Origin: DASVDK01 sp036381125 [NCBI: Thermodesulfobacteriota bacterium]
Lineage (GTDB): Bacteria > DASVDK01
Assembly (NCBI GenBank): GCA_036381125.1
Contig: DASVDK010000029.1
Coordinates: 1 to 17,114 of the forward strand
Length of the DNA: 17,114 nt
Direction of reading: 5' to 3'
In this document: positions 2,311 through 11,699 of the stretch, one piece after another
Position numbering within the stretch: position 1 is the first letter of the stretch
Layout: each line of letters begins with the position of its first letter
Program-made: the position numbers and the translations under genes
Notes under the pieces: generated by a model
The model's input: only the letters and a program-made list of their open reading frames with translations
Told to the model about the DNA's origin: nothing
Databases searched by the model: none

Positions 2311-2419
2311 CCGACAGGGATTTTCGCGCCATTCCCGGGGCCCGGTGCGCTGGCTTCGCCCGCGCGCCTCTGCTACGCTTCCACCTCGCACGTCGACACG
2401 CGAGGAGTCGAAAGCCGCC

Positions 2420-3883
2420 ATGCCGCTCACCGAGCCCGCGCATCCCGTCGTCCCGGACCGCTTCTTCGAGTCGCGCTTCGGCCTCTCGCCCGACCGCGTC
2501 GGGCAGACGCTCGGCGGGACGCTGCGCGCGGCCGTCGACTACGCCGATCTCTTCGTGGAGCACACCATCCGGGAGTCGATCGCGCTCGAGGAGGGGATCG
2601 TCAAGAAGGCCTCGCGCGCCATCGAGCAGGGCGCCGGCGTCCGCGTCCTGGCGGGCGAGAAGACCGGCTACGCCCACACCGACGACCTCTCGACGAAGGC
2701 GCTCCGCGCCGCGGCCGAGGCGGCGAGGGCCATTGCCGAGGGCGGGGGGGCGAAGGGCGCCTCGGTCGCCGTCATGCCGATCAGCCGGCCCCAGCACGAC
2801 CTGTACCCGGCCGTCGAGCCGGCGGCCGACCGGCCGATCGCCGACAAGGTGCAGCTCCTCGAGCGGATCGACCGGCTCGCGCGCGCCATCGATCCGAGGG
2901 TGACGAAGGTCGTCGCCGGCTTTGCCGCGGAGCACAAGGTGGTCCTCGTGGCCGGCTCCGACGGCCGCATGGTGGGCGACGTGCAGCCGCTCGTTCGCCT
3001 GACGGTCCAGGTGATCGTCAAGGACGGCGAGAACCGCCAGGTCGGCACCTACGGCGGCGGCGGCCGGTACCCCTTCGGGTGGTTCCTCGAGGAGGGCCGA
3101 TGGGAGCGCTTCACGCGCGAGGCGGTCCGCATCGCCCTGGTGAACCTCGACGCGGTCGACGCGCCGGCGGGCGAGATGACGGTCGTGCTCGGGCCGGGCT
3201 GGCCCGGCATCCTCCTGCACGAGGCGGTGGGGCACGGCCTCGAGGGGGACTTCAACCGCAAGAAGCTGTCGGCCTTCTCGGGCCGGATCGGCCAGCGCGT
3301 CGCCTCGGACCTCGTCACGGTCGTCGACGACGGCACCATCCCGGGCCGCCGCGGCTCCCTCAACGTCGACGACGAGGGGGTGCCCACCTCGCGCACGGTC
3401 CTCATCGAGAAGGGGGTCCTCAAGGGGTACCTGCAGGACCGGTTGAACGCGCGCCTCATGGGCATGGCGCCGACCGGCAACGGCCGCCGGGAGTCCTATC
3501 GCCACGTCGTCATGCCGCGCATGACCAACACGTTCATGCTCGCCGGGGCCGACGACCCGGCCGACATCCTGCGCGGCGTCCGGCGCGGGCTCTACGCCGT
3601 GAACTTCGGCGGCGGTCAGGTGGACATCACCAACGGCAAGTTCGTCTTCTCGGCGTCCGAGGCGTACCTGGTGGAGGACGGCCGGCCGACGCGGCCCGTG
3701 AAGGGCGCCACCCTCATCGGCAACGGCCCGGACGTGCTCACGCGCGTCTCGGCCGTGGGGCACGACCTCATGCTCGACGAGGGGGTCGGCACCTGCGGCA
3801 AGGACGGCCAGTCGGTGCCGGTCGGGGTTGGGCTGCCGACGATCCGGATCGACGGGCTCACCGTCGGCGGCACGAAGGGTTAG
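2420..3883 (+). CDS. tldD: TldD-like zinc metallopeptidase (catalytic subunit of TldD/TldE)
   Basis: This 487-aa protein matches the usual length of TldD (about 480). The zinc site HEAVGH (267-272, pattern HExxxH) is followed by GLEGDFNRKK and SGRIGQRVASDLVTVVDDG (287-305), the classic TldD core. Cys459 lies in GVGTCGKDGQ, where TldD commonly has a conserved cysteine. TldD pairs with TldE to make a cytoplasmic protease that degrades or matures peptides; the E. coli pair acts on CcdA and microcin B17 precursor. The ATG at 2420 has GAGGAG at 2402-2407; in-frame sequence upstream of it lacks family similarity. The tldE-like gene begins 3 bp after the stop, which supports the pairing. No RiPP precursor is seen nearby, so the substrate is unknown. 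This is the first gene of a six-gene operon. Confidence 0.95.
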   Translation: MPLTEPAHPVVPDRFFESRFGLSPDRVGQTLGGTLRAAVDYADLFVEHTIRESIALEEGIVKKASRAIEQGAGVRVLAGEKTGYAHTDDLSTKALRAAAEAARAIAEGGGAKGASVAVMPISRPQHDLYPAVEPAADRPIADKVQLLERIDRLARAIDPRVTKVVAGFAAEHKVVLVAGSDGRMVGDVQPLVRLTVQVIVKDGENRQVGTYGGGGRYPFGWFLEEGRWERFTREAVRIALVNLDAVDAPAGEMTVVLGPGWPGILLHEAVGHGLEGDFNRKKLSAFSGRIGQRVASDLVTVVDDGTIPGRRGSLNVDDEGVPTSRTVLIEKGVLKGYLQDRLNARLMGMAPTGNGRRESYRHVVMPRMTNTFMLAGADDPADILRGVRRGLYAVNFGGGQVDITNGKFVFSASEAYLVEDGRPTRPVKGATLIGNGPDVLTRVSAVGHDLMLDEGVGTCGKDGQSVPVGVGLPTIRIDGLTVGGTKG

Positions 3884-3886
3884 GGC

Positions 3887-5260
3887 ATGCGCGGCAACGG
3901 CTTCGGCGAGGACCAGGCGCGCGACCTCCTGCACGCCGCCCGCAAGGCGGGCGCCACGGCGGGCGACGTCGTCTACGTGGAGGCCGATCGCTTCGCCGGC
4001 GTCGTCCGCCTGCGCGAGGTGGACCGGGTGAAGCAGGCGCGCGAGCGGACGCTGGGGCTGCGCCTGTTCGTGGGGCGCCGCTCGGCCACCACCTCCACGG
4101 CCGACCTGTCGAAGGAGAGCCTCGCGCGGCTCGTGGCCGACACGGTGGCCATGGCGCGCGCCACGGCGGAGGACCCGGCCGCGGGGCTTCCGGAGGACGA
4201 CGGCGCGCCGGGCGCCGACGAGGGCCTGGGGCTCCGGGACGACCGGATCGAGGCCCTGCCGGTGGGCGACCGGCTCGCCCTCGCGCGCGACGCCGAGGCC
4301 GCCGCCCTGGCGGCCGATCCGCGCGTCGTCAACTCCGAGGGGGCCGGCTTCGACAGCCACGCCTCGACGGTCGTCTACGCCAACACCGCCGGCTTCTCCG
4401 GCTCCTATCGCGCGACGGCGGCCACCCTCTGGGTCTCGCCCATCGCGGCCGATCCGGCGGCGCCCGAGCTCGGCATGCAGCGCGACGGCTGGTACACCTC
4501 GGCGCGGGCGCTCGCCCGCCTCGAGGCGCCGGCCGACGTGGGGCGCACGGCCGCGCTGCGGGCGGTGCGGCGGCTCGGCGCCCGCAAGGTGGCGACCTGC
4601 GAGGTGCCGGTCGTCTTCGACCCCGAGTCGGCGGCAAGCCTCCTGCGCGCCCTCGCGCAGGCGGTGAACGGCCAGTCGATCTACCGCGGCGGATCGTTCC
4701 TCGCGGGCAGGCTCGGCGAGCGAGTCGCGTCGGACCTCGTGACGGTGGTGGACGACGGGCGCCTGGTGGCCGGCCTCGGCAGCCGACCCTTCGACGCCGA
4801 GGGGCTCTCCACGCGCCGCACCGTGGTGCTCGACCGGGGCGTCCTGCGCTCCTACCTCCTCGACGCCTACAGCGCGAGGAAGCTCGGCCTCGAGCCGACC
4901 GGCAACGCCAGCCGGTCGCCGGGCGAGGCGCCCGTACCGGCGCCGACGAACTTCATGCTGGTGCCGCCGGCCGACGCACCGGCGCCCGAGGCGATCATCC
5001 GCCAGACGAGGCGCGGCCTCTACGTCACCGACATGATCGGTTTCGGCGTGAACGTCGTGACGGGCGACTACTCCCGTGGGGCCAGCGGCTTCTGGATCGA
5101 GAACGGGGAGCTGGCCTATCCGGTCGAGGAGATCACCGTCGCGGGCAACCTCGCGCGCATGCTGGCCGACGTCGACGCCGTCGGTCGAGACCTCGACCTG
5201 CGCGCCTCGGTTGCGGCGCCCACCGTCCGGGTGGCCCGGATGACCGTGGCGGGTCGTTAG
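3887..5260 (+). CDS. pmbA: TldE/PmbA-like subunit of TldD/TldE protease
   Basis: This 457-aa protein is homologous to the preceding TldD-like protein but has no HExxxH. The corresponding region reads VPVVFDPESAASLLRALAQ (about 240-258), as expected of the non-catalytic TldE/PmbA subunit (usual length about 450). The block RVASDLVTVVDDG (279-291) is shared word for word with the TldD-like partner (293-305), which shows their common origin. PmbA-typical C-terminal features follow: EPTGNASRSPGEAP, APTNFML, and GFGVNVVTGDYSRGASGFWIEN. In known systems TldE shapes the substrate cleft of the heterodimer and supplies no zinc ligands. It starts 3 bp after the tldD stop, so co-translation is likely. 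The 161-aa unrecognised gene follows after 13 bp. Confidence 0.94.
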   Translation: MRGNGFGEDQARDLLHAARKAGATAGDVVYVEADRFAGVVRLREVDRVKQARERTLGLRLFVGRRSATTSTADLSKESLARLVADTVAMARATAEDPAAGLPEDDGAPGADEGLGLRDDRIEALPVGDRLALARDAEAAALAADPRVVNSEGAGFDSHASTVVYANTAGFSGSYRATAATLWVSPIAADPAAPELGMQRDGWYTSARALARLEAPADVGRTAALRAVRRLGARKVATCEVPVVFDPESAASLLRALAQAVNGQSIYRGGSFLAGRLGERVASDLVTVVDDGRLVAGLGSRPFDAEGLSTRRTVVLDRGVLRSYLLDAYSARKLGLEPTGNASRSPGEAPVPAPTNFMLVPPADAPAPEAIIRQTRRGLYVTDMIGFGVNVVTGDYSRGASGFWIENGELAYPVEEITVAGNLARMLADVDAVGRDLDLRASVAAPTVRVARMTVAGR

Positions 5261-5273
5261 AGGGCCGTTGCCG

Positions 5274-5759
5274 GTGGCGGCGCTGGCGTTGATCGGTCTC
5301 CATCTGACGCCGCCGGTCCGCGGCCTCACGCGGGACGCGGTGGCCGTCGAGGCGCGCACCCTCGCACGGGCGAGCCGCCTCGTCCTCAAGCCGCTGCCGC
5401 GGATGGCGGCGGGCGGGCCCATCGGCCGCGCCGCGCTCGGCTTCGCCGCCATGCCCGACGGCGACGCGCCGGGCGAGGCGCTGCCCCGCCTGCGGCGTCT
5501 CGTGGTCGGCCTCGCCCGGCTCCGCGCGGTCGAGTCGGTCTCCATCCTCGTCCGCCCGGGTGCCGGCGGGACCGGCGGCGATCCGGCGCCGGCCGCCGGG
5601 CTCCCCTCCGTCGAGGTCCCCGCGGGCGCCTTCGAGTCGGCCGGCGAGCAGGGGCTCCTGCCCGATCGCGTGTACGTGGTGTCGGTCGAGGACGACGAGG
5701 AGGAGCGGCCCGCGCCGCGGCGGGCCTCGCGCGCCCTCACGGCCGGCGACCCGGAGTAG
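5274..5759 (+). CDS. Hypothetical 161-aa protein in the tldDE-polX operon
   Basis: I do not recognise a family. The frame is convincingly coding, because third positions are almost all G/C throughout and it fits tightly between tldE (13 bp) and polX (5 bp). I chose GTG at 5274 because AGAGGG lies 9 nt upstream; a TTG at 5268 is the alternative and would add two residues. The N-terminal third is basic and alanine/leucine-rich, the middle (about 85-110) is glycine/proline-rich, and the C-terminal part contains VYVVSVEDDEEER, an acidic stretch followed by an Arg-rich tail. There is no signal peptide and no cysteine cluster or known catalytic motif. Its position suggests a function linked to the protease or the PolX protein, but nothing in the sequence shows which. 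Confidence 0.65.
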   Translation: MAALALIGLHLTPPVRGLTRDAVAVEARTLARASRLVLKPLPRMAAGGPIGRAALGFAAMPDGDAPGEALPRLRRLVVGLARLRAVESVSILVRPGAGGTGGDPAPAAGLPSVEVPAGAFESAGEQGLLPDRVYVVSVEDDEEERPAPRRASRALTAGDPE

Positions 5760-5764
5760 GCGCG

Positions 5765-7438
5765 GTGCGCGTCTCGCGTGAGGAGATCGCCAGGGTCCTC
5801 GACGAGATCGCCGTCCTGCTCGAGATCAAGGGGGAGAACCCGTTCAAGACGCGCGCGTACGCCAACGGCGCGCGAGCCATCGAGGCCTTCCCCGGCGACC
5901 TCGAGGCGATGGTGCGCGAGGGGCGGCTCCAGGAGATCCCCGGCATCGGCAAGGCGCTGGCCGACAAGGTGACCGAGCTCGCGACGACCGGCCGCCTCGG
6001 CTTCTACGATCGGCTGATCGCCGAGGTGCCGCGCGCCCTGGTCGAGCTGGCCGCCGTGCCGGGGCTCGGGCCGAAGAAGGCGCGCGCCGTCTACGAAGGG
6101 CTCGGGATCACGACCCCCGGCGAGCTGGAGTACGCGATCCACGAGAACCGCCTCGTGACCCTTCCCGGCTTCGGGGCGAAGACGCAGGCGCGGATCGCCG
6201 CGGGGCTCGAGCGGATGAAGGCCGGGCGGGGGCGGGTGCTGCTCGACGAGGCCGACCGGCTCGTCGGCGGGCTCGTCGGGCAGGCGCGCGCCGCCGGCCT
6301 CACCGCCGTGGCGGCCGGCGAGTGGCGCCGCCGGCTCGAGGTCGTGGGGGAGGTGCCCGTTCTGGTCGTCGATGCCGACGGGGCCGCCCTCGAGCGACTC
6401 CCCGCGCTGGAGGCGGTCAGGGCGCGCGGGCTCCGCGTGACGGTCGAGCCGGTCGCACCGGGGGCCCTCGGCGCGGCGCTTGCCCTCGCCACCGGCCCCG
6501 ACGGCTTCGTGTTCGGCCTGATCGAGCGGGCGCGCGCGCGGGGGCTCGACCTCACGCCGGCGGGGCTGCTCGAGGGGGGCGAGCCGCTCCCCACGCCGGA
6601 CGAGGCGGCCCTCTTCGCCGCGCTGGACCTCGTCGAGGTGCCGCCCGAGTGGCGCGACGCGCCGGAGGCGCTCGCCGCCGCGGCCTCCGGGCAGGTGCCC
6701 CGCCTGGTCGAGCCGTCCGACATCACCGGCGTCTTCCACGTGCACACCACCTACTCGGACGGCTCGGCGAGCGTCGCCGACATGGTTGCGGCGGCGGCCG
6801 CCAGGGGATACACATACGTCGGGATCTCGGACCACAGCCCGGCCGCCTTCTACGCCAACGGCGTGACGCGCGAGCGCCTCGCCCTGCAGCACGCGGAGAT
6901 CGAGGCGGCCGAGCGCGCGCACCCGGGGATCCGGGTGCTCAAGGGGACCGAGGCCGACATCCTGGCCGACGGCTCGATCGACTACGATGCCGAGACGCTG
7001 GCGCGCTTCGACTTCGTCATCGCGTCGGTCCACTCGCGGTTCCAGATGGACCGGGCGACGATGACCGCCCGCATCGTGAAGGCGCTCGCGCATCCGCGCG
7101 TCACCATCCTCGGCCACCCGACGGGCCGCCTGCTCCTCGCGCGCGACCCCTATGCGGTGGACGTGGACGCCGTCCTCGAGGCGGCGGCGCGGCACGGCGT
7201 CGTCGTCGAGGTGAACGCCAGCCCGCACCGCCTCGACCTCGACTGGCGGTTCCTCGCGCGGGCGAGGGCGCTCGGCGTCGTCGTGAGCGTGAACCCCGAC
7301 GCGCACGCGGTGGCCGAGTACGACTACGTCGGCTACGGTGTGGGGGTGGCCCGCAAGGGCGGCCTCACCGCCGCCGACGTCTTCAACGCGCGACCACGCG
7401 AGGCCGTGCTCGCGCACCTCGCGGCGCGTCGGGTCTAG
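5765..7438 (+). CDS. polX: PolX-family protein: degenerate polymerase palm plus intact PHP nuclease domain
   Basis: This 557-aa protein is near the usual bacterial PolX length of about 570. Helix-hairpin-helix motifs lie at 58-69 (IPGIGKALADKV), 98-114 (VPGLGPKKARAVYEGLG) and 133-144. The nucleotidyltransferase palm follows (about 155-300), then a C-terminal PHP domain (about 320-550). The PHP metal-site motifs are all visible: HVHTTYSDG (325-333), DH (356-357), GTEADILADGSIDY (394-407), SVHSRF (421-426), GHPTGRL (450-456) and DAH (512-514). In contrast, the palm motif normally ending in GDID reads GEVP (195-198), and the third aspartate strand reads GLRVTV. The protein is therefore predicted to lack polymerase activity but keep nuclease or phosphoesterase activity in base-excision-type repair. 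It starts with GTG, with GGAG 8 nt upstream. moeA follows 17 bp later. Confidence 0.92.
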   Translation: MRVSREEIARVLDEIAVLLEIKGENPFKTRAYANGARAIEAFPGDLEAMVREGRLQEIPGIGKALADKVTELATTGRLGFYDRLIAEVPRALVELAAVPGLGPKKARAVYEGLGITTPGELEYAIHENRLVTLPGFGAKTQARIAAGLERMKAGRGRVLLDEADRLVGGLVGQARAAGLTAVAAGEWRRRLEVVGEVPVLVVDADGAALERLPALEAVRARGLRVTVEPVAPGALGAALALATGPDGFVFGLIERARARGLDLTPAGLLEGGEPLPTPDEAALFAALDLVEVPPEWRDAPEALAAAASGQVPRLVEPSDITGVFHVHTTYSDGSASVADMVAAAAARGYTYVGISDHSPAAFYANGVTRERLALQHAEIEAAERAHPGIRVLKGTEADILADGSIDYDAETLARFDFVIASVHSRFQMDRATMTARIVKALAHPRVTILGHPTGRLLLARDPYAVDVDAVLEAAARHGVVVEVNASPHRLDLDWRFLARARALGVVVSVNPDAHAVAEYDYVGYGVGVARKGGLTAADVFNARPREAVLAHLAARRV

Positions 7439-7455: not shown

Positions 7456-8688
7456 ATGGCGCCACGCGAGGCTCCTGCGCTCCGGGTCGCCGAGGCCCAG
7501 GAGACCGTCCTCAACGCCGTCCGGCCCATCGGGACCGAGACGATCGACCTCGTCTCCGCGCTCTGGCGCGTGCTCGCCGAGGACGTCGTCGCGATCCGCT
7601 CGATCCCCCCTGCCGACAACTCGGCCATGGACGGCTATGCGGTCCGCATCGCGGACGTCGCCGCGGCGACGCCCGAGCGCCCCGTGATCCTGCCGGTGTC
7701 GGAGGTGGTCCCGGCCGGCAAGCGGGCGCGCGCGCCGCTCGAGCCGGGGCATGCCGTCAAGATCATGACCGGCGCCCCCATGCCGGAGGGGGCCGACACG
7801 GTGGTACGGGTCGAGCACACCGACGGCGGCACCGAGCGGGTGACGATCGAGCGCGCCCCCGAGCCCGGCGAGAACGTCCGCCGGGCCGGGGAGGACATCG
7901 AGGCCGGCGACGTGGTGCTTGCCGCCGGGACGCTCCTGCGGCCCGCGGAGCTCGGCCTGCTCGCCTCGGTGAACCGGCCGCGCGTGCTCGTGACCGTCCG
8001 CCCCCGCGTCGCGATCCTCGCGACCGGCGACGAGGTGGCCGACCTCGGCCACCCCGATGCGGCGCTCGAGGACCGCGTCCTCGACGCCAACTCCTACTCG
8101 CTCGCCGGGCAGGTGCTCGAGGCGGGCGGGGTGCCGCTCCTCCTCGGCGTGGCGCGGGACGACCGCCGCGTCATCGGCGAGCGGATCGAGGCGGGCCTGC
8201 GAGCCGACGTGCTCGTGACGTCCGGCGGCGTCTCCGTCGGCGACTACGACTACGTCAGGGAGGTGCTCGACCGGCTCGGGCTCGAGCGGCTCTTCTGGAA
8301 GGTGATGATCCGGCCGGGCGGGCCGCTCGCCTTCGGACTGCTCGGCGGCCGCCCGGTCTTCTGCCTCCCGGGCAATCCGGTCGCCTCCATGGTGACCGCG
8401 GAGCTCTTCCTGCGGCCGGCCCTGCGCAAGATGCTCGGCCACCCGAACGTGGCGCGCGAGACGGTCGTCGCCACCCTCACCGAGCCGATCTCCGCCCGGA
8501 AGGGCTACCGGACCTTCGTGCGCGCCGTGCTGCGGCGCGAGCGCGGCGAGCGGATCGTCTCGTCGACCGGTCCCCAGGGCTCGGGCATCCTCCGCTCCAT
8601 GAGCCGCGCCAACGCCCTGATCGTCGTCCCGGAGGACGTCGAGCGCTACGAGGCGGGGGCGCGCGTGGAGGTGATGCGGCTCGAATGA
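7456..8688 (+). CDS. moeA: Molybdopterin molybdotransferase MoeA
   Basis: This 410-aa protein has the full MoeA signature set: DNSAMDGYAV (54-63, with Asp59), KIMTGAPMPEGADTVVRVE (102-120), GENVRRAGEDI (138-148), ILATGDEV (187-194), TSGGVSVGDYDYV (255-267), RPGGPLAFG (286-294) and the C-terminal CLPGNPVASMV (303-313). MoeA inserts molybdate into adenylylated molybdopterin to give molybdenum cofactor, in the cytosol. The domain order and length are canonical, with no fused MogA or PBP domain. The ATG at 7456 follows GGGGAGGAGG. No other Moco genes and no molybdoenzyme are in the window. The last 84 bp are duplicated at 11440-11524 (see findings). The stop overlaps the next start (ATGA). Confidence 0.97.
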   Translation: MAPREAPALRVAEAQETVLNAVRPIGTETIDLVSALWRVLAEDVVAIRSIPPADNSAMDGYAVRIADVAAATPERPVILPVSEVVPAGKRARAPLEPGHAVKIMTGAPMPEGADTVVRVEHTDGGTERVTIERAPEPGENVRRAGEDIEAGDVVLAAGTLLRPAELGLLASVNRPRVLVTVRPRVAILATGDEVADLGHPDAALEDRVLDANSYSLAGQVLEAGGVPLLLGVARDDRRVIGERIEAGLRADVLVTSGGVSVGDYDYVREVLDRLGLERLFWKVMIRPGGPLAFGLLGGRPVFCLPGNPVASMVTAELFLRPALRKMLGHPNVARETVVATLTEPISARKGYRTFVRAVLRRERGERIVSSTGPQGSGILRSMSRANALIVVPEDVERYEAGARVEVMRLE

Positions 8689-9113
8689 TCCGGATCCGGG
8701 AGATCGACCACCTGGTGCTGCGCGTCCGGGACCTCGACCGGATGCTCGCCTTCTACCGCGACATCCTCGGCTGCACCGTCGAGCGGCGGCAGGACGAGAT
8801 CGGGCTCGTCCAGCTTCGCGCCGGCCGCTCGCTCATCGACCTGGTCCCGGTGGACGGCGTGCTCGGGCGGAGGGGTGGGGCGCCCCCGGGGCGCGAGGGC
8901 CGCAACCTCGATCACCTCTGTCTCAAGGTCGAGCCGTTCGACGCCGAGGCGATCCGGACGTACCTTGCCGCGCGCGGCGTCGCGGCGGGGGAGGTCGCGT
9001 CCCGGTACGGCGCCGAGGGCGAAGGCCCGTCGATCTACGTCGCCGACCCCGAGGGCAACACGGTCGAGCTGAAGGGGCCGCCCTGGCCGGCCGGGGCGAC
9101 TCCGTCGGACTAG
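8685..9113 (+). CDS. VOC-family (glyoxalase/dioxygenase fold) protein
   Basis: This 142-aa protein contains one vicinal-oxygen-chelate unit pair. The first module starts IDHLVLRVRDLDRMLAFYRD with His9, and the second starts NLDHLCLKV with His77 and ends YVADPEGNTVELKG with Glu128. These three, plus an acidic residue at Asp52 (LIDLV), are in the positions of the usual four metal ligands, so it is probably an active metal enzyme. VOC proteins include glyoxalases, extradiol dioxygenases and fosfomycin-type transferases; I cannot choose a substrate. It overlaps moeA by 4 bp (ATGA), indicating translational coupling as the last gene of the operon. Part of it is duplicated, with an internal deletion, 2.8 kb downstream. 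Confidence 0.92.
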   Translation: MIRIREIDHLVLRVRDLDRMLAFYRDILGCTVERRQDEIGLVQLRAGRSLIDLVPVDGVLGRRGGAPPGREGRNLDHLCLKVEPFDAEAIRTYLAARGVAAGEVASRYGAEGEGPSIYVADPEGNTVELKGPPWPAGATPSD

Positions 9114-9250: not shown

Positions 9251-9757
9251 ATGAGAATGGCGGCTCTGGCTCTGATCGTCGCGGCGGCGGTGTCGCTTCC
9301 GCCGAGCCTCCACGCGGCCGAACCGCTCACGGCCGCGAAGGGTGAGGACATCCGCAGGCTGCTGCAGGCCACGGGTGCGCTGAGCGTCGCGCAGTTGATG
9401 TCAGAGGCCGTCGTGAGCCAGATGTCGGCCGCCCTGAAGCGGGCCCGGCCGGATCTCCCGGCCCATGTGTTCGACGTCCTCGCCGAGACCGTGAACGAGG
9501 TCATCGCGGAGGAGATGGTCGCCAGGGGCGGCTTCGTCGACGCGATGATCCTGCTGTACCACCGGCATTTCACGCACGAGGAGATCCGGGGGCTGGTCGC
9601 CTTCTACGAGACGCCCCTCGGCCGGAAGGCGGGCTCGCTCGCCCCCATCATGAGCCAGGAGGGCCTTCGGATCGGCCAGCAATGGGGCGAGAGCCTCGGT
9701 CCGAAGATCGCGGAGCGGGTCAAGGCGCGGCTCAAGCAGGAAGGCATCGAGCTCTAG
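9251..9757 (+). CDS. Secreted DUF2059 domain protein
   Basis: This 168-aa protein has an N-terminal signal peptide (MRMAALALIVAAAVSLPPSL, likely cut after LHA near residue 22), so it is exported to the periplasm or beyond. The C-terminal part carries the DUF2059 hallmark HFTHEEIRGLVAFYETPLGR (106-125), preceded by a helical region rich in A/E. The domain is widespread in Gram-negative bacteria and has no firmly established reaction. The ATG at 9251 is preferred over an in-frame TTG at 9227 because GAGGA lies just upstream and the signal peptide then begins correctly; a second ATG at 9257 is possible. It has its own promoter at 9180-9208. The IS110 remnant begins 40 bp after its stop. Confidence 0.88.
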   Translation: MRMAALALIVAAAVSLPPSLHAAEPLTAAKGEDIRRLLQATGALSVAQLMSEAVVSQMSAALKRARPDLPAHVFDVLAETVNEVIAEEMVARGGFVDAMILLYHRHFTHEEIRGLVAFYETPLGRKAGSLAPIMSQEGLRIGQQWGESLGPKIAERVKARLKQEGIEL

Positions 9758-9797
9758 GGCCAATGCCTGCGCCTGGGGTCGGCATCTGTCTTGGGTG

Positions 9798-10091
9798 TCA
9801 AGGCCGAGAGCGGACCGGCTGCCAGGGGCGGCCGGTCTTGACCATGGCATTGAGGATGATGACGAACGTGCGCACGCAGGCGGTCAGGGCGACCTTCGTG
9901 CGCTTCCCCGCCGCCCGCAGGCGCTGGTAGAGGGCCACGCGGTGGCGGCGCAGCTGGGCGACGAGGTCGGCCAGGCCGGCCTCGGTGTAGGGGACCCGCC
10001 AGGGGCGACCGCCCCCCGGGTGCACGTCGATGTCGAGATGCGCCCGGGCGATGTCGATCCCGGCGACGACGGCCGCAGCGGCGTTGGACAT
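9798..10091 (-). pseudogene. Internally deleted IS110-family transposase (in-frame 97-aa remnant)
   Basis: The frame encodes the two ends of an IS110-type transposase joined together. Residues 8-52 (VVAGIDIARAHLDIDV, then WRVPYTEAGLADLVAQL) are the N-terminal DEDD-domain start with its first Asp at residue 13. Residues 53-90 (ALYQRLRAAGKRTKVALTA through ILNAMVKTGRPW) are the extreme C-terminus of the family. The middle, normally well over 200 residues with the other acidic residues and the conserved Tnp_20 serine, is missing, yet the frame stays open. It cannot be an active recombinase. The intact family is typically 320-400 aa. The ATG at 10091 begins the family homology. The non-coding stretch to about 10260 may be what is left of the element's upstream end. 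IS110 elements often lack terminal inverted repeats, so I cannot set the element's ends. Confidence 0.82.
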
Positions 10092-10296
10092 GGATGATGA
10101 GGCCTCCGAAGGGGGTGCCGAGGCCTCTCCCCGGCCCCGCCTTGCGGGATGCGACCTCGGCGGGTCGCGCATCTGTGCGGGCTCGGCGGGAGGCCCACGC
10201 CCGGCGATCCTGGCTGACCCACGGGCTCACGGCCCCAAGGTCTGACGGTCTACCGGGCTCGGCTCGTTGACGCCCCCAAGATACAAGGTCTTTCCG

Positions 10297-10330
10297 TTTT
10301 CCAATCTGGAAAATGGATAGACCTGACCCC
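10297..10330. repeat. REP-like repeat, copy 1 (3' side of the transposase remnant)
   Basis: TTTTCCA (10297-10303) and TGGAAAA (10307-10313) form a 7-bp stem with a 3-nt loop. Eight bases later comes CCTGACCCC (10322-10330). The module TGGAAAA-N8-CCTGACCCC recurs exactly at 11290-11313. Its position just past the 3' end of the REP-associated transposase remnant fits the known association of such transposases with REP palindromes. Confidence 0.65.
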
Positions 10331-10910
10331 ATGGAACGGTCTCGCGCCTCCGCCGCCTCGCCGCCAGCCGACCCGCAGCAGCCACGTGCGAGCGCCGGCG
10401 ACGACGCCACGCGCCGCCGGCGCGGCCGACGAGCACGGGTCCATGCCACGGAAGTCCGGCCGGTGCTTCCTCACGTTCTCGAGCACGTAGACGAGCGCGT
10501 GGTGTACTTCGCGGGGTGTCGCGAGGTCGCGGCGATGGTAGCGGTCCCCCCAGACCCTGCCCCGTCGCCTCGACGAGCAGGTGGACGTGATTGCTCTGGA
10601 CGGAGAAGTGGCAGATGCGGAAGGCGCGCCCGCGCTGCGCGAGGCGAATCGCCTCGCGCAGGGCACCAAAGGCGCGCATGCCACGAAGGCTGGGGAGCCC
10701 GGGACGCGCCCGAAGCGTGATGTGCGAGGGGTGCCGGGCGTCGTGATAGGGCCGGGTTCGGTGCGCGACGTTCGGGCGTTGGCCCTGGCGCTTGCGCCCG
10801 GCGCCCGGACGCCGGCCGCCCCAGGTGATGGGGAGCGACAAGGCGAGTTGCCGCCGGTCGACACGGCGTGGCCGGCGGCGACTCGCCGGCAGGGTGGCGA
10901 GTTGCCGCAT
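10331..10910 (-). pseudogene. REP-associated tyrosine transposase (Y1/HUH, RAYT-like), broken
   Basis: Two leftward frames together encode the parts of a Y1 transposase. From 10910 the first frame gives a basic lead with WGGRRPGAGRK (30-40), then HITLRARPGLPSLRG and CHFSVQSNHVHLLVEA (100-115), the HUH motif (NHVH, 107-110). Near 10555-10571 the frame changes, and RRGRVWGDRYHRRDLATP followed by HALVYVLENVRKHRPD continues the family in another frame; the Tyr of WGDRY is a candidate catalytic residue. The roughly 20-25 residues that normally separate these parts are missing. A second stretch after MDPCSSA is also shortened before TWLLRVGWRR. It is therefore inactive: one frame-changing deletion plus one further deletion. 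It is bounded by the REP-like module at 10297-10330, and more modules lie upstream at 11241-11313. Confidence 0.8.
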
Positions 10911-11240
10911 GAACGACCTTCTCGCGAAGCGGGATCACGTAAACGCGTGGGAAAGCCGACCGAAGACAGGAGGGGAGAGCCGGGCAGGGCGCGTCGCTTG
11001 ATTGAGCACTATTCTATCGTAAGTCGATAGGGCAGGCAAGAGGTGATCAGGCGGGTCCGGTCCGGACGCATCGGTAACAGGTCAGAGCGAGAGAGCCAGG
11101 CCACGCAGGACCGGGTCGTCCGGAGACATGGGTGCCGCTCGGGGGGCATGGACGTGAACGCCGTGCGCTGGAGGGAGATATCGCCGCCGAGGGATGACCA
11201 GGAGACCGGCTTTAGGTTGGTCGCGTGGCCTCGTCGGCGC
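10911..11240. other. Non-coding stretch upstream of the transposase remnant
   Basis: I see no gene. Short frames on both strands have no family resemblance and mixed codon usage. The only structure I note is a small hairpin, CTATCG (11014-11019) and CGATAG (11025-11030), with a 5-nt loop in an unusually AT-rich patch. It is probably decayed DNA of the debris region. Confidence 0.45.
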
Positions 11241-11439: not shown

Positions 11440-11524
11440 CCGCGCCAACGCCCTGATCGTCGTCCCGGAGGACGTCGAGCGCTACGAGGCGGGGGCGCGC
11501 GTGGAGGTGATGCGGCTCGAATGA
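11440..11524 (+). pseudogene. Duplicate of moeA 3' end
   Basis: Bases 11440-11524 are identical to 8604-8688, the last codons of moeA from RANALIVVPED to RLE and the TGA stop. Identity continues through the start of the VOC gene to 11554. The upstream boundary is sharp: the preceding bases match the PIN fragment instead. It is a non-functional scrap of about 27 codons. Confidence 0.92.
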
Positions 11525-11699
11525 TCCGGATCCGGGAGATCGACCACCTGGTGCCGCTCGCTCATCGACCTGGTCCCGGTGGACGGCGCGCTCGGGCGGA
11601 GGAGTGAGGCGCCGCCGGGGCGCGAGGGCCGCAACCTCGATCACCTCTGTCTCGAGGTCGAGCCGTTCGACGCCGAGGCGATCCGGACGTACCTCGCCG
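11521..11699 (+). pseudogene. Truncated, internally deleted duplicate of the VOC gene
   Basis: Bases 11521-11554 equal the first 34 bp of the VOC gene (8685-8718). The copy then jumps to the equivalent of 8825 and follows the original to 8970 (11699) with six substitutions in 146 bp. The missing 107 bp (8718-8825) shift the frame, so the start codon leads into IDHLVPLAHRPG and stops soon afterwards. The deletion joint has a 2-bp microhomology (GC). The C-terminal third, including the last metal ligand, is absent. It has no function as a protein. Confidence 0.92.

What the first reader, a model, noticed from the sequence alone, without database searches (positions are those of the whole stretch)
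5765..7438. PolX protein with a dead polymerase palm but an intact PHP nuclease domain
Seen: the palm motif normally written G-S-x-R-R...G-D-I-D reads AGEWRRRLEVVGEVP (184-198), so both metal-binding Asp of the GDID pair are replaced (Glu196, Pro198). The third Asp strand (normally DLRVV) reads GLRVTV, and the GSKxHN-like motif reads GPDGFV. The PHP metal-site motifs at 325-333, 356-357, 394-407, 421-426, 450-456 and 512-514 are all preserved. Known: PolX polymerisation needs the three Asp. Inferred: the protein has become a nuclease with a DNA-binding, non-polymerising front half. If conserved across the lineage this would be a distinct functional class.
Basis: partly seen in the sequence, partly recalled or inferred. 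Interest (0 to 1): 0.6.

Follow-up and report, generated by a model that had tools for sequence, protein, structure and literature searches.

The report
Polymerase-dead PolX with intact nuclease domain
This bacterial gene encodes a DNA-repair protein that has very probably lost its DNA-building site but kept its DNA-trimming site; such proteins were already described in 2022, so this is a new, apparently independently arisen example of a known kind.

Summary
The gene at 5765-7438 encodes a full-length PolX (8 kDa, thumb, palm, fingers, PHP). The palm lacks 17 residues and a beta-hairpin against its nearest relative, and the dNTP pocket is altered. All nine PHP metal ligands and six PHP DNA-contact residues are kept. 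The interpretation, a nuclease that no longer polymerises, is the best reading but not new: Prostova et al. 2022 (PMC9226535) defined 'noncanonical PolX' (809, 27.5% of their set) and showed that two Deinococcus members lack polymerase and are Mn2+-dependent 3'-5' exonucleases. Hence E/P is not shared by the relatives found. Side finding: the serine of the palm GSxRR motif is Asp or Glu in 21 of 32 noncanonical and 0 of 140 canonical PolX aligned. No enzyme was assayed, and the window's own genome is not held, so partners (Ku, LigD, a second PolX) are unknown.

The parts
5765..7438 (+). noncanonical (very probably polymerase-dead) PolX gene, 557 aa
5780..5998 (+). 8 kDa HhH domain (Pfam HHH_8, residues 6-78)
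   Evidence: 77.2 bits
6044..6211 (+). thumb HhH (Pfam HHH_5, residues 94-149)
   Evidence: 58 bits
6269..6475 (+). degenerate palm (residues 169-237): 17 residues shorter than the canonical relative L106, beta-hairpin missing in the model
6317..6331 (+). palm motif GEWRR (residues 185-189; canonical GSxRR), Ser replaced by Glu186
6350..6358 (+). E196-V-P198 in place of the first two catalytic Asp
6440..6442 (+). T226 in place of the third catalytic Asp
6476..6655 (+). fingers (Pfam DNA_pol_B_thumb, residues 238-297), full length
   Evidence: 36.2 bits; canonical L106 76.5, L097 60.6; no gap against L106
6494..6511 (+). GPDGFV (residues 244-249) in place of the dNTP-binding GSKxHN/S motif
6722..7435 (+). 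PHP nuclease domain (residues 320-557), all nine metal ligands HHHEHHEDH and DNA-contact residues F426, R455, R460, N484, R489, K531
2345..3883 (+). TldD, upstream on the same strand (context)
3887..5260 (+). TldE/PmbA-like (context; below the model's cut-off)
5268..5759 (+). 163-aa ORF without Pfam or NCBIfam match, ends 5 bases before polX (context)
7456..8688 (+). MoeA-like molybdopterin molybdotransferase, starts 17 bases after polX (context)
8685..9113 (+). glyoxalase-superfamily protein (context)

Best explanation
The gene encodes a noncanonical PolX. Shown from sequence and model: the metal-binding triad of the palm is gone (E196, P198, T226), the dNTP pocket is changed and a palm hairpin is lost, while the HhH DNA-binding front and the full PHP metal site with its DNA-contact residues are kept, in a protein predicted to keep the overall PolX fold. 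Inferred: it cannot add nucleotides; the front half binds nicked, gapped or broken DNA and delivers 3' ends or abasic sites to the Mn2+-dependent PHP site, which trims them (3'-5' exonuclease, AP-endonuclease, 3'-phosphatase) in base-excision or double-strand-break repair. The polymerase was probably lost in this lineage separately from the other noncanonical groups sampled.
For: Triad EPT and dNTP-site changes GS->GE, Y->L, GS->GP, K->D, N/S->V. Palm identity to the canonical relative L106 only 29% plus 17 gaps, against 63% in PHP; the canonical pair L106-L097 has 45% and 54%. PHP HHHEHHEDH intact. Residues matching B. subtilis F440, R469, R474, N498, R503, K545, whose mutation severely reduces the nuclease activities (PMC6616362, passages), are all kept (matched by spacing and alignment). 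Model pLDDT 93.0, pTM 0.86; TM 0.88, rmsd 2.9 A to Thermus PolX 3au6, Z 46.0 over 542 residues. Best PDB sequence match is D. radiodurans PolX 2w9m, whose AEE protein showed no polymerase activity and Mn2+ exonuclease. Independent loss: grouped with canonical L106-L108 at 97/94; one clade with the main noncanonical group p-AU 0.025, all noncanonical rows of the set as one clade p-AU 0.004.
Against: No biochemistry on this protein. One sequence only: the nearest relative is about 50% identical, so selection on this gene could not be measured. E196 and E228 are acidic, so a weak metal site is not strictly excluded. The placement rests on a long branch with biased composition; support was just over threshold in one tree (97/94), not starred in another (90), and the window protein was unplaced in the first; the AU groups were named after the trees were seen. 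No NHEJ or BER gene was recognised in the window, and the genome is not held.
Confidence: 0.82

Rival explanations
1. The palm still polymerises weakly, with E196 and neighbouring acids (E186, E228, D203, D205) coordinating metal in place of the Asp triad.
For: Acidic residues are present near the site; a short-patch polymerase activity had been reported for the D. radiodurans AEE protein (as told in PMC9226535).
Against: The second site is Pro and the third Thr; D203/D205 follow the end of strand 196-202 rather than its active-site end; the dNTP pocket is altered as well; Prostova et al. could not reproduce the D. radiodurans report.
Confidence: 0.04
2. The gene is decaying, or the palm is a sequencing or assembly artefact.
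For: A single copy; the palm is strongly diverged and odd in first-position GC.
Against: Open frame, GC3 0.94-0.98 in every domain including the palm; PHP is 60-63% identical to L106-L108 with all ligands kept; the deletion is in frame; high-confidence fold.
Confidence: 0.05
3. The protein is mainly a DNA-end scaffold or acts on a substrate other than DNA, with PHP hydrolysis of DNA secondary.
For: PHP domains of similar sequence or fold include phosphatases; the whole DNA-binding front is retained; Prostova et al. propose architectural roles as well.
Against: The residues needed for nuclease action on DNA are kept, and related noncanonical proteins are exonucleases.
Confidence: 0.09

Closest known systems
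Noncanonical PolX of Deinococcus radiodurans (PDB 2w9m, triad AEE) and D. gobiensis (triad ARE)
   Same: Same five-domain order; no full Asp triad, altered dNTP site, shortened palm and intact HHHEHHEDH PHP site (2w9m aligned here; D. gobiensis from the paper only).
   Different: Triad EPT instead of AEE/ARE; 23% identity to 2w9m in the palm and 47.5% in PHP; not grouped with it in the larger trees.
   Same: Nearest relatives found, 49-51% identical overall, with the same PHP ligands.
   Different: They keep DDD and GSxRR; the L106 model has five palm strands against three in the window model.
Noncanonical PolX in other genomes of that same unnamed phylum (L136-L139, L141-L144)
   Same: Triad lost (SSS, ESR, ASR, ESR, SSS, QTR, DVD, RVE) with PHP ligands intact.
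   Different: A separate clade; palm segment 63 residues in seven of eight (46 in L141), against 48 in the window protein.
Rhizobial plasmid noncanonical PolX (L085-L088, L091)
   Same: Triad lost, Ser of GSxRR acidic in all five, palm strongly shortened, PHP ligands intact.
   Different: 37-41 palm-segment residues against 48; of the four with annotation, two have ligD adjacent or two genes away, which the window gene does not.
Thermus thermophilus PolX (3au2, 3au6)
   Same: Overall fold, TM 0.88 to 3au6.
   Different: Catalytic DDD and intact dNTP pocket; first PHP ligand is Gln there, His here.

Membership tests
Noncanonical prokaryotic PolX (Prostova et al. 2022) | homologous full-length PolX: 8 kDa, thumb, palm, fingers, PHP | tested here: met
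   (no Pfam palm match, but canonical L106 and L097 have none either)
Noncanonical prokaryotic PolX (Prostova et al. 2022) | one or more of the three acidic triad residues replaced (the classification rule) | tested here: met
   E196, P198, T226
Noncanonical prokaryotic PolX (Prostova et al. 2022) | changed dNTP-binding residues, hydrophobic residue at the Asn279 position | tested here: met
   V249 at that position; other pocket changes
Noncanonical prokaryotic PolX (Prostova et al. 2022) | palm deletion (common, not required) | tested here: met
   17 gaps against L106; segment 48 residues, 62-68 in 140 canonical rows
Noncanonical prokaryotic PolX (Prostova et al. 2022) | fingers truncation (occurs in many, not required for the class) | tested here: not met
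   63 of 63 fingers columns filled against L106; an optional trait, so it does not bar membership
Noncanonical prokaryotic PolX (Prostova et al. 2022) | intact PHP site HHHEHHEDH (98% of altered PolX in the paper) | tested here: met
Noncanonical prokaryotic PolX (Prostova et al. 2022) | no polymerase activity, Mn2+-dependent 3'-5' exonuclease | not testable with these tools
   needs purified protein; shown in that paper for two Deinococcus members
Main noncanonical clade (common origin) | groups with Deinococcus and other noncanonical PolX on a tree | tested here: not met
   p-AU 0.025 (group tested included two canonical rows nested in it) and 0.004 for all noncanonical rows of the 38; groups named after seeing the tree; few Bacteroidota and one Deinococcus sequence were in the set, so the evidence is moderate
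Canonical PolX | three acidic triad residues | tested here: not met
PolX-like PHP-only proteins (PMC12926913) | polymerase region and part of the 8 kDa domain absent | tested here: not met
   8 kDa, thumb, reduced palm and fingers present

The most novel reading that the evidence does not exclude
Polymerase loss in PolX is repeated and directional: in separate lineages, this one included, a canonical PolX gives up its triad and also swaps the serine of the palm GSxRR motif (a triphosphate contact in Pol beta, from recall) for Asp or Glu while keeping the arginine pair. This would turn the nucleotide pocket into a closed, salt-bridged scaffold that shuts nucleotides out and commits the enzyme to PHP trimming. 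On this view loss of polymerisation is selected, not mere decay.
Probability: 0.2. Interest if true: 0.42.

Novelty: new member of a known kind. Interest (0 to 1): 0.22.

Why it matters
It adds a noncanonical PolX whose nearest sampled relatives are canonical, giving a dead/live comparison for asking what the polymerase half does for the nuclease, a question Prostova et al. leave open. It also supports their view that polymerase-dead PolX arose more than once and should not be read as one inherited class.

Tried and rejected
Reading the missing Pfam palm match as evidence of degeneration: rejected, because canonical L106 and L097 show no palm match either. Operon as a clue to function: tldD-tldE-orf-polX-moeA is tightly spaced here, but in the 5.5-19 kb stretches fetched around four relatives' polX (L178-L181) only polX matched any of 14 window genes; of ten neighbouring proteins scanned, eight had Pfam matches, none to a DNA-repair family, and two had none. 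NHEJ link: Ku is in 8 of 8 genomes with a noncanonical PolX read in the G142 phylum against 42 of the 87 others (Fisher p 0.006), but lineage and genome size confound this, no PolX was read in 46 of the 87, and Ku is in 0 of the 3 genomes of the window protein's nearest relatives; no claim is made for the window. Acidic residue at the GSxRR serine as proven convergence: parsimony gives 7 changes, but only 4 independent pairs lie on supported branches and the sign test cannot reach 0.05. Naming the organism: 69 of the 95 genomes of the G142 phylum have a long TldD match of 63-70% identity; the others have partial or weaker ones (G223 45%, G224 42%; G219 only a weak one); G114, alone in its phylum here, scores highest of all (68%, 718.8 bits). 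So the lineage is not fixed. Large and small high-GC genomes would fit Methylomirabilota (recall), but no call names it. Viral contigs: no relative. AU tests on the 113-row tree did not finish and were run on 38 rows. Paper searches: (listings).

Rows dropped: L095 (no palm/PHP) and L082 (duplicate of L017) before the first alignment; 59 of 172 rows left out of the 113-row tree and 134 of 172 out of the 38-row tree, to cut near-copies and run time. The 172 rows (L029 and L083 are identical; L145 and L152 are partial) are not a random sample: L136-L155 were picked partly for shorter or weaker matches and L158-L177 by score and length, so 32 of 172 is no frequency. The scan of named genomes starts from six short exact peptide patterns and kept 80 of 392 relatives, so closer ones may have been missed.

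Full report
1. The observation. The ORF at 5765-7438 (+) is 557 aa from a GTG start. Pfam finds HHH_8, HHH_5, HHH, DNA_pol_B_thumb (the fingers) and PHP above their cut-offs; the NCBIfam PolX model scores 374.6 bits, below its curated cut-off of 426; the best PDB sequence match is D. radiodurans PolX 2w9m (318 bits), then T. thermophilus PolX (303.8). Against Thermus D198/D200/D243 the triad is E196, P198, T226, so the third site is T226 and not G222. Further changes sit in the nucleotide pocket: GS->GE (E186), Y->L, GS->GP, K->D, N/S->V, while the arginine pair is kept. All nine PHP ligands are present.

2. Is it more than drift or error? By domain, identity to the canonical relative L106 is 51% (8 kDa), 47% (thumb), 29% plus 17 gaps (palm), 41% (fingers) and 63% (PHP). 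The canonical pair L106-L097 shows 59, 49, 45, 60 and 54%. Loss is thus concentrated in the palm, with the fingers also lower, and PHP is the best-kept part. GC at third codon positions is 0.94-0.98 in every domain, as in four other window genes (0.94-0.96); first-position GC is raised in the palm (0.94, against 0.72-0.87 elsewhere), which fits relaxed constraint there. The six residues matching B. subtilis F440, R469, R474, N498, R503 and K545, whose mutation severely affects the nuclease activities (PMC6616362, passages read), are F426, R455, R460, N484, R489 and K531 (matched by spacing and alignment).

3. Structure. AlphaFold2 on 46 aligned sequences gave pLDDT 93.0 and pTM 0.86. Foldseek's seven best hits are all bacterial PolX chains (Thermus and Deinococcus); 3au6 (rank 7 by E-value) superposes best, TM 0.88 and rmsd 2.9 A, the others with TM 0.66-0.70 and large rmsd, that is, shifted domains. 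VIA-align 2: Z 46.0 over 542 residues to 3au6, 41.6 to 2w9m. Palm strands in the window model are 180-183, 196-202 and 224-230; in the canonical relative L106 (pLDDT 94.0) they are 180-186, 198-205, 221-227, 231-236 and 241-247. The strands that bear the triad remain; the intervening hairpin is gone, with a helix at 213-220. D203 and D205 follow strand 196-202, so they are unlikely stand-ins for the triad (inference; distances not measured).

4. Relatives. One scan of named genomes (one per 84,980 species) gave 392 relatives, of which the best 80 were kept; none exceeds 45% identity. The nearest are L106 (G219), L107 (G222) and L108 (G220), all DDD, then L097 (G105, DDE). In the G142 phylum 50 PolX loci from 49 genomes were read (L106-L135, L136-L155); 8 are noncanonical. 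One genome, G255, has both kinds (L140 DDD, L141 SSS). The window's TldD is 63-70% identical to long matches in 69 of these 95 genomes, but G114, alone in its phylum here, scores slightly higher; the window probably comes from this phylum or near it, unnamed here.

5. Tree. With palm and adjoining columns removed, the window protein groups with L106-L108 in a 113-row tree (SH-aLRT 90, not starred) and a 38-row tree (97/94). Forcing it into a clade with the main noncanonical group (and two canonical rows nested there) costs 11.7 log units (p-AU 0.025); forcing all noncanonical rows of the set together costs 60.6 (p-AU 0.004). The groups were named after the tree was seen and the branches are long, so independent loss is likely but not proven. 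An earlier tree with poorer sampling left the window protein unplaced. Prostova et al. already infer several independent origins.

6. Known work. PMC9226535 (abstract and sections 10-16 read, of section 15 only the first of two parts) classes 809 PolX (27.5%) as noncanonical, gives their traits, and shows that the D. radiodurans (AEE) and D. gobiensis (ARE) proteins lack polymerase activity and are Mn2+-dependent 3'-5' exonucleases; PHP mutants of the D. radiodurans protein lose the activity. PMC12926913 (passages) finds PHP residues conserved in 95% and polymerase residues in 75% of its PolX1 group.

7. Side finding. At the serine of the palm GSxRR motif, 21 of 32 noncanonical rows (window included) carry Asp or Glu, against 0 of 140 canonical (139 Ser, 1 Gly). 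On the 113-row tree this needs 7 changes, but only 4 independent pairs lie on supported branches, too few for a test. In the main text of PMC9226535, S180 and S188 do not occur, and the passages found for GSARR, serine and triphosphate do not speak of this change; figures and supplements were not seen, so it may be shown there.

8. Verdict. A real, well-preserved, very probably polymerase-dead PolX nuclease: a new member of a known kind, probably an independent loss. Its function in the cell is inferred by analogy.

Noticed in passing
L176 (G152:C1:2393500-2399500): A PolX-family protein with triad DNS and the PHP ligands replaced as well (RSAERPEGQ instead of HHHEHHEDH): both active sites look dead, the only such case among 172 aligned rows.
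   Followed up: no
L095 (Gemmatirosa kalamazoonensis plasmid NZ_CP007129.1), ORF from 2761: PolX-type HhH front (matching query residues 3-159) in an ORF of 359 codons; the rest did not match the query's palm or PHP.
   Followed up: partly
L086 and L088 (Mesorhizobium and Bradyrhizobium plasmids): Noncanonical PolX genes in plasmid stretches with ligD nearby, plus dinB and SOS-response peptidase genes in L086.
   Followed up: partly
L140 and L141 (genome G255): One genome with a canonical (DDD) and a noncanonical (SSS) PolX.
   Followed up: no
window 11440-11699: Partial second copy (96-98% identical) of 8604-8970, the end of moeA and start of the glyoxalase-like gene, with about 107 bases missing inside: a recent partial duplication.
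   Followed up: partly
window 9754-11030: Overlapping ORFs, mostly on the minus strand, that resemble transposase remnants to the eye; the four tested have no Pfam match.
   Followed up: partly
Ku in the phylum of G142: Ku found in 50 of 95 genomes, including all 8 in which a noncanonical PolX was read; lineage and genome size confound this.
   Followed up: partly
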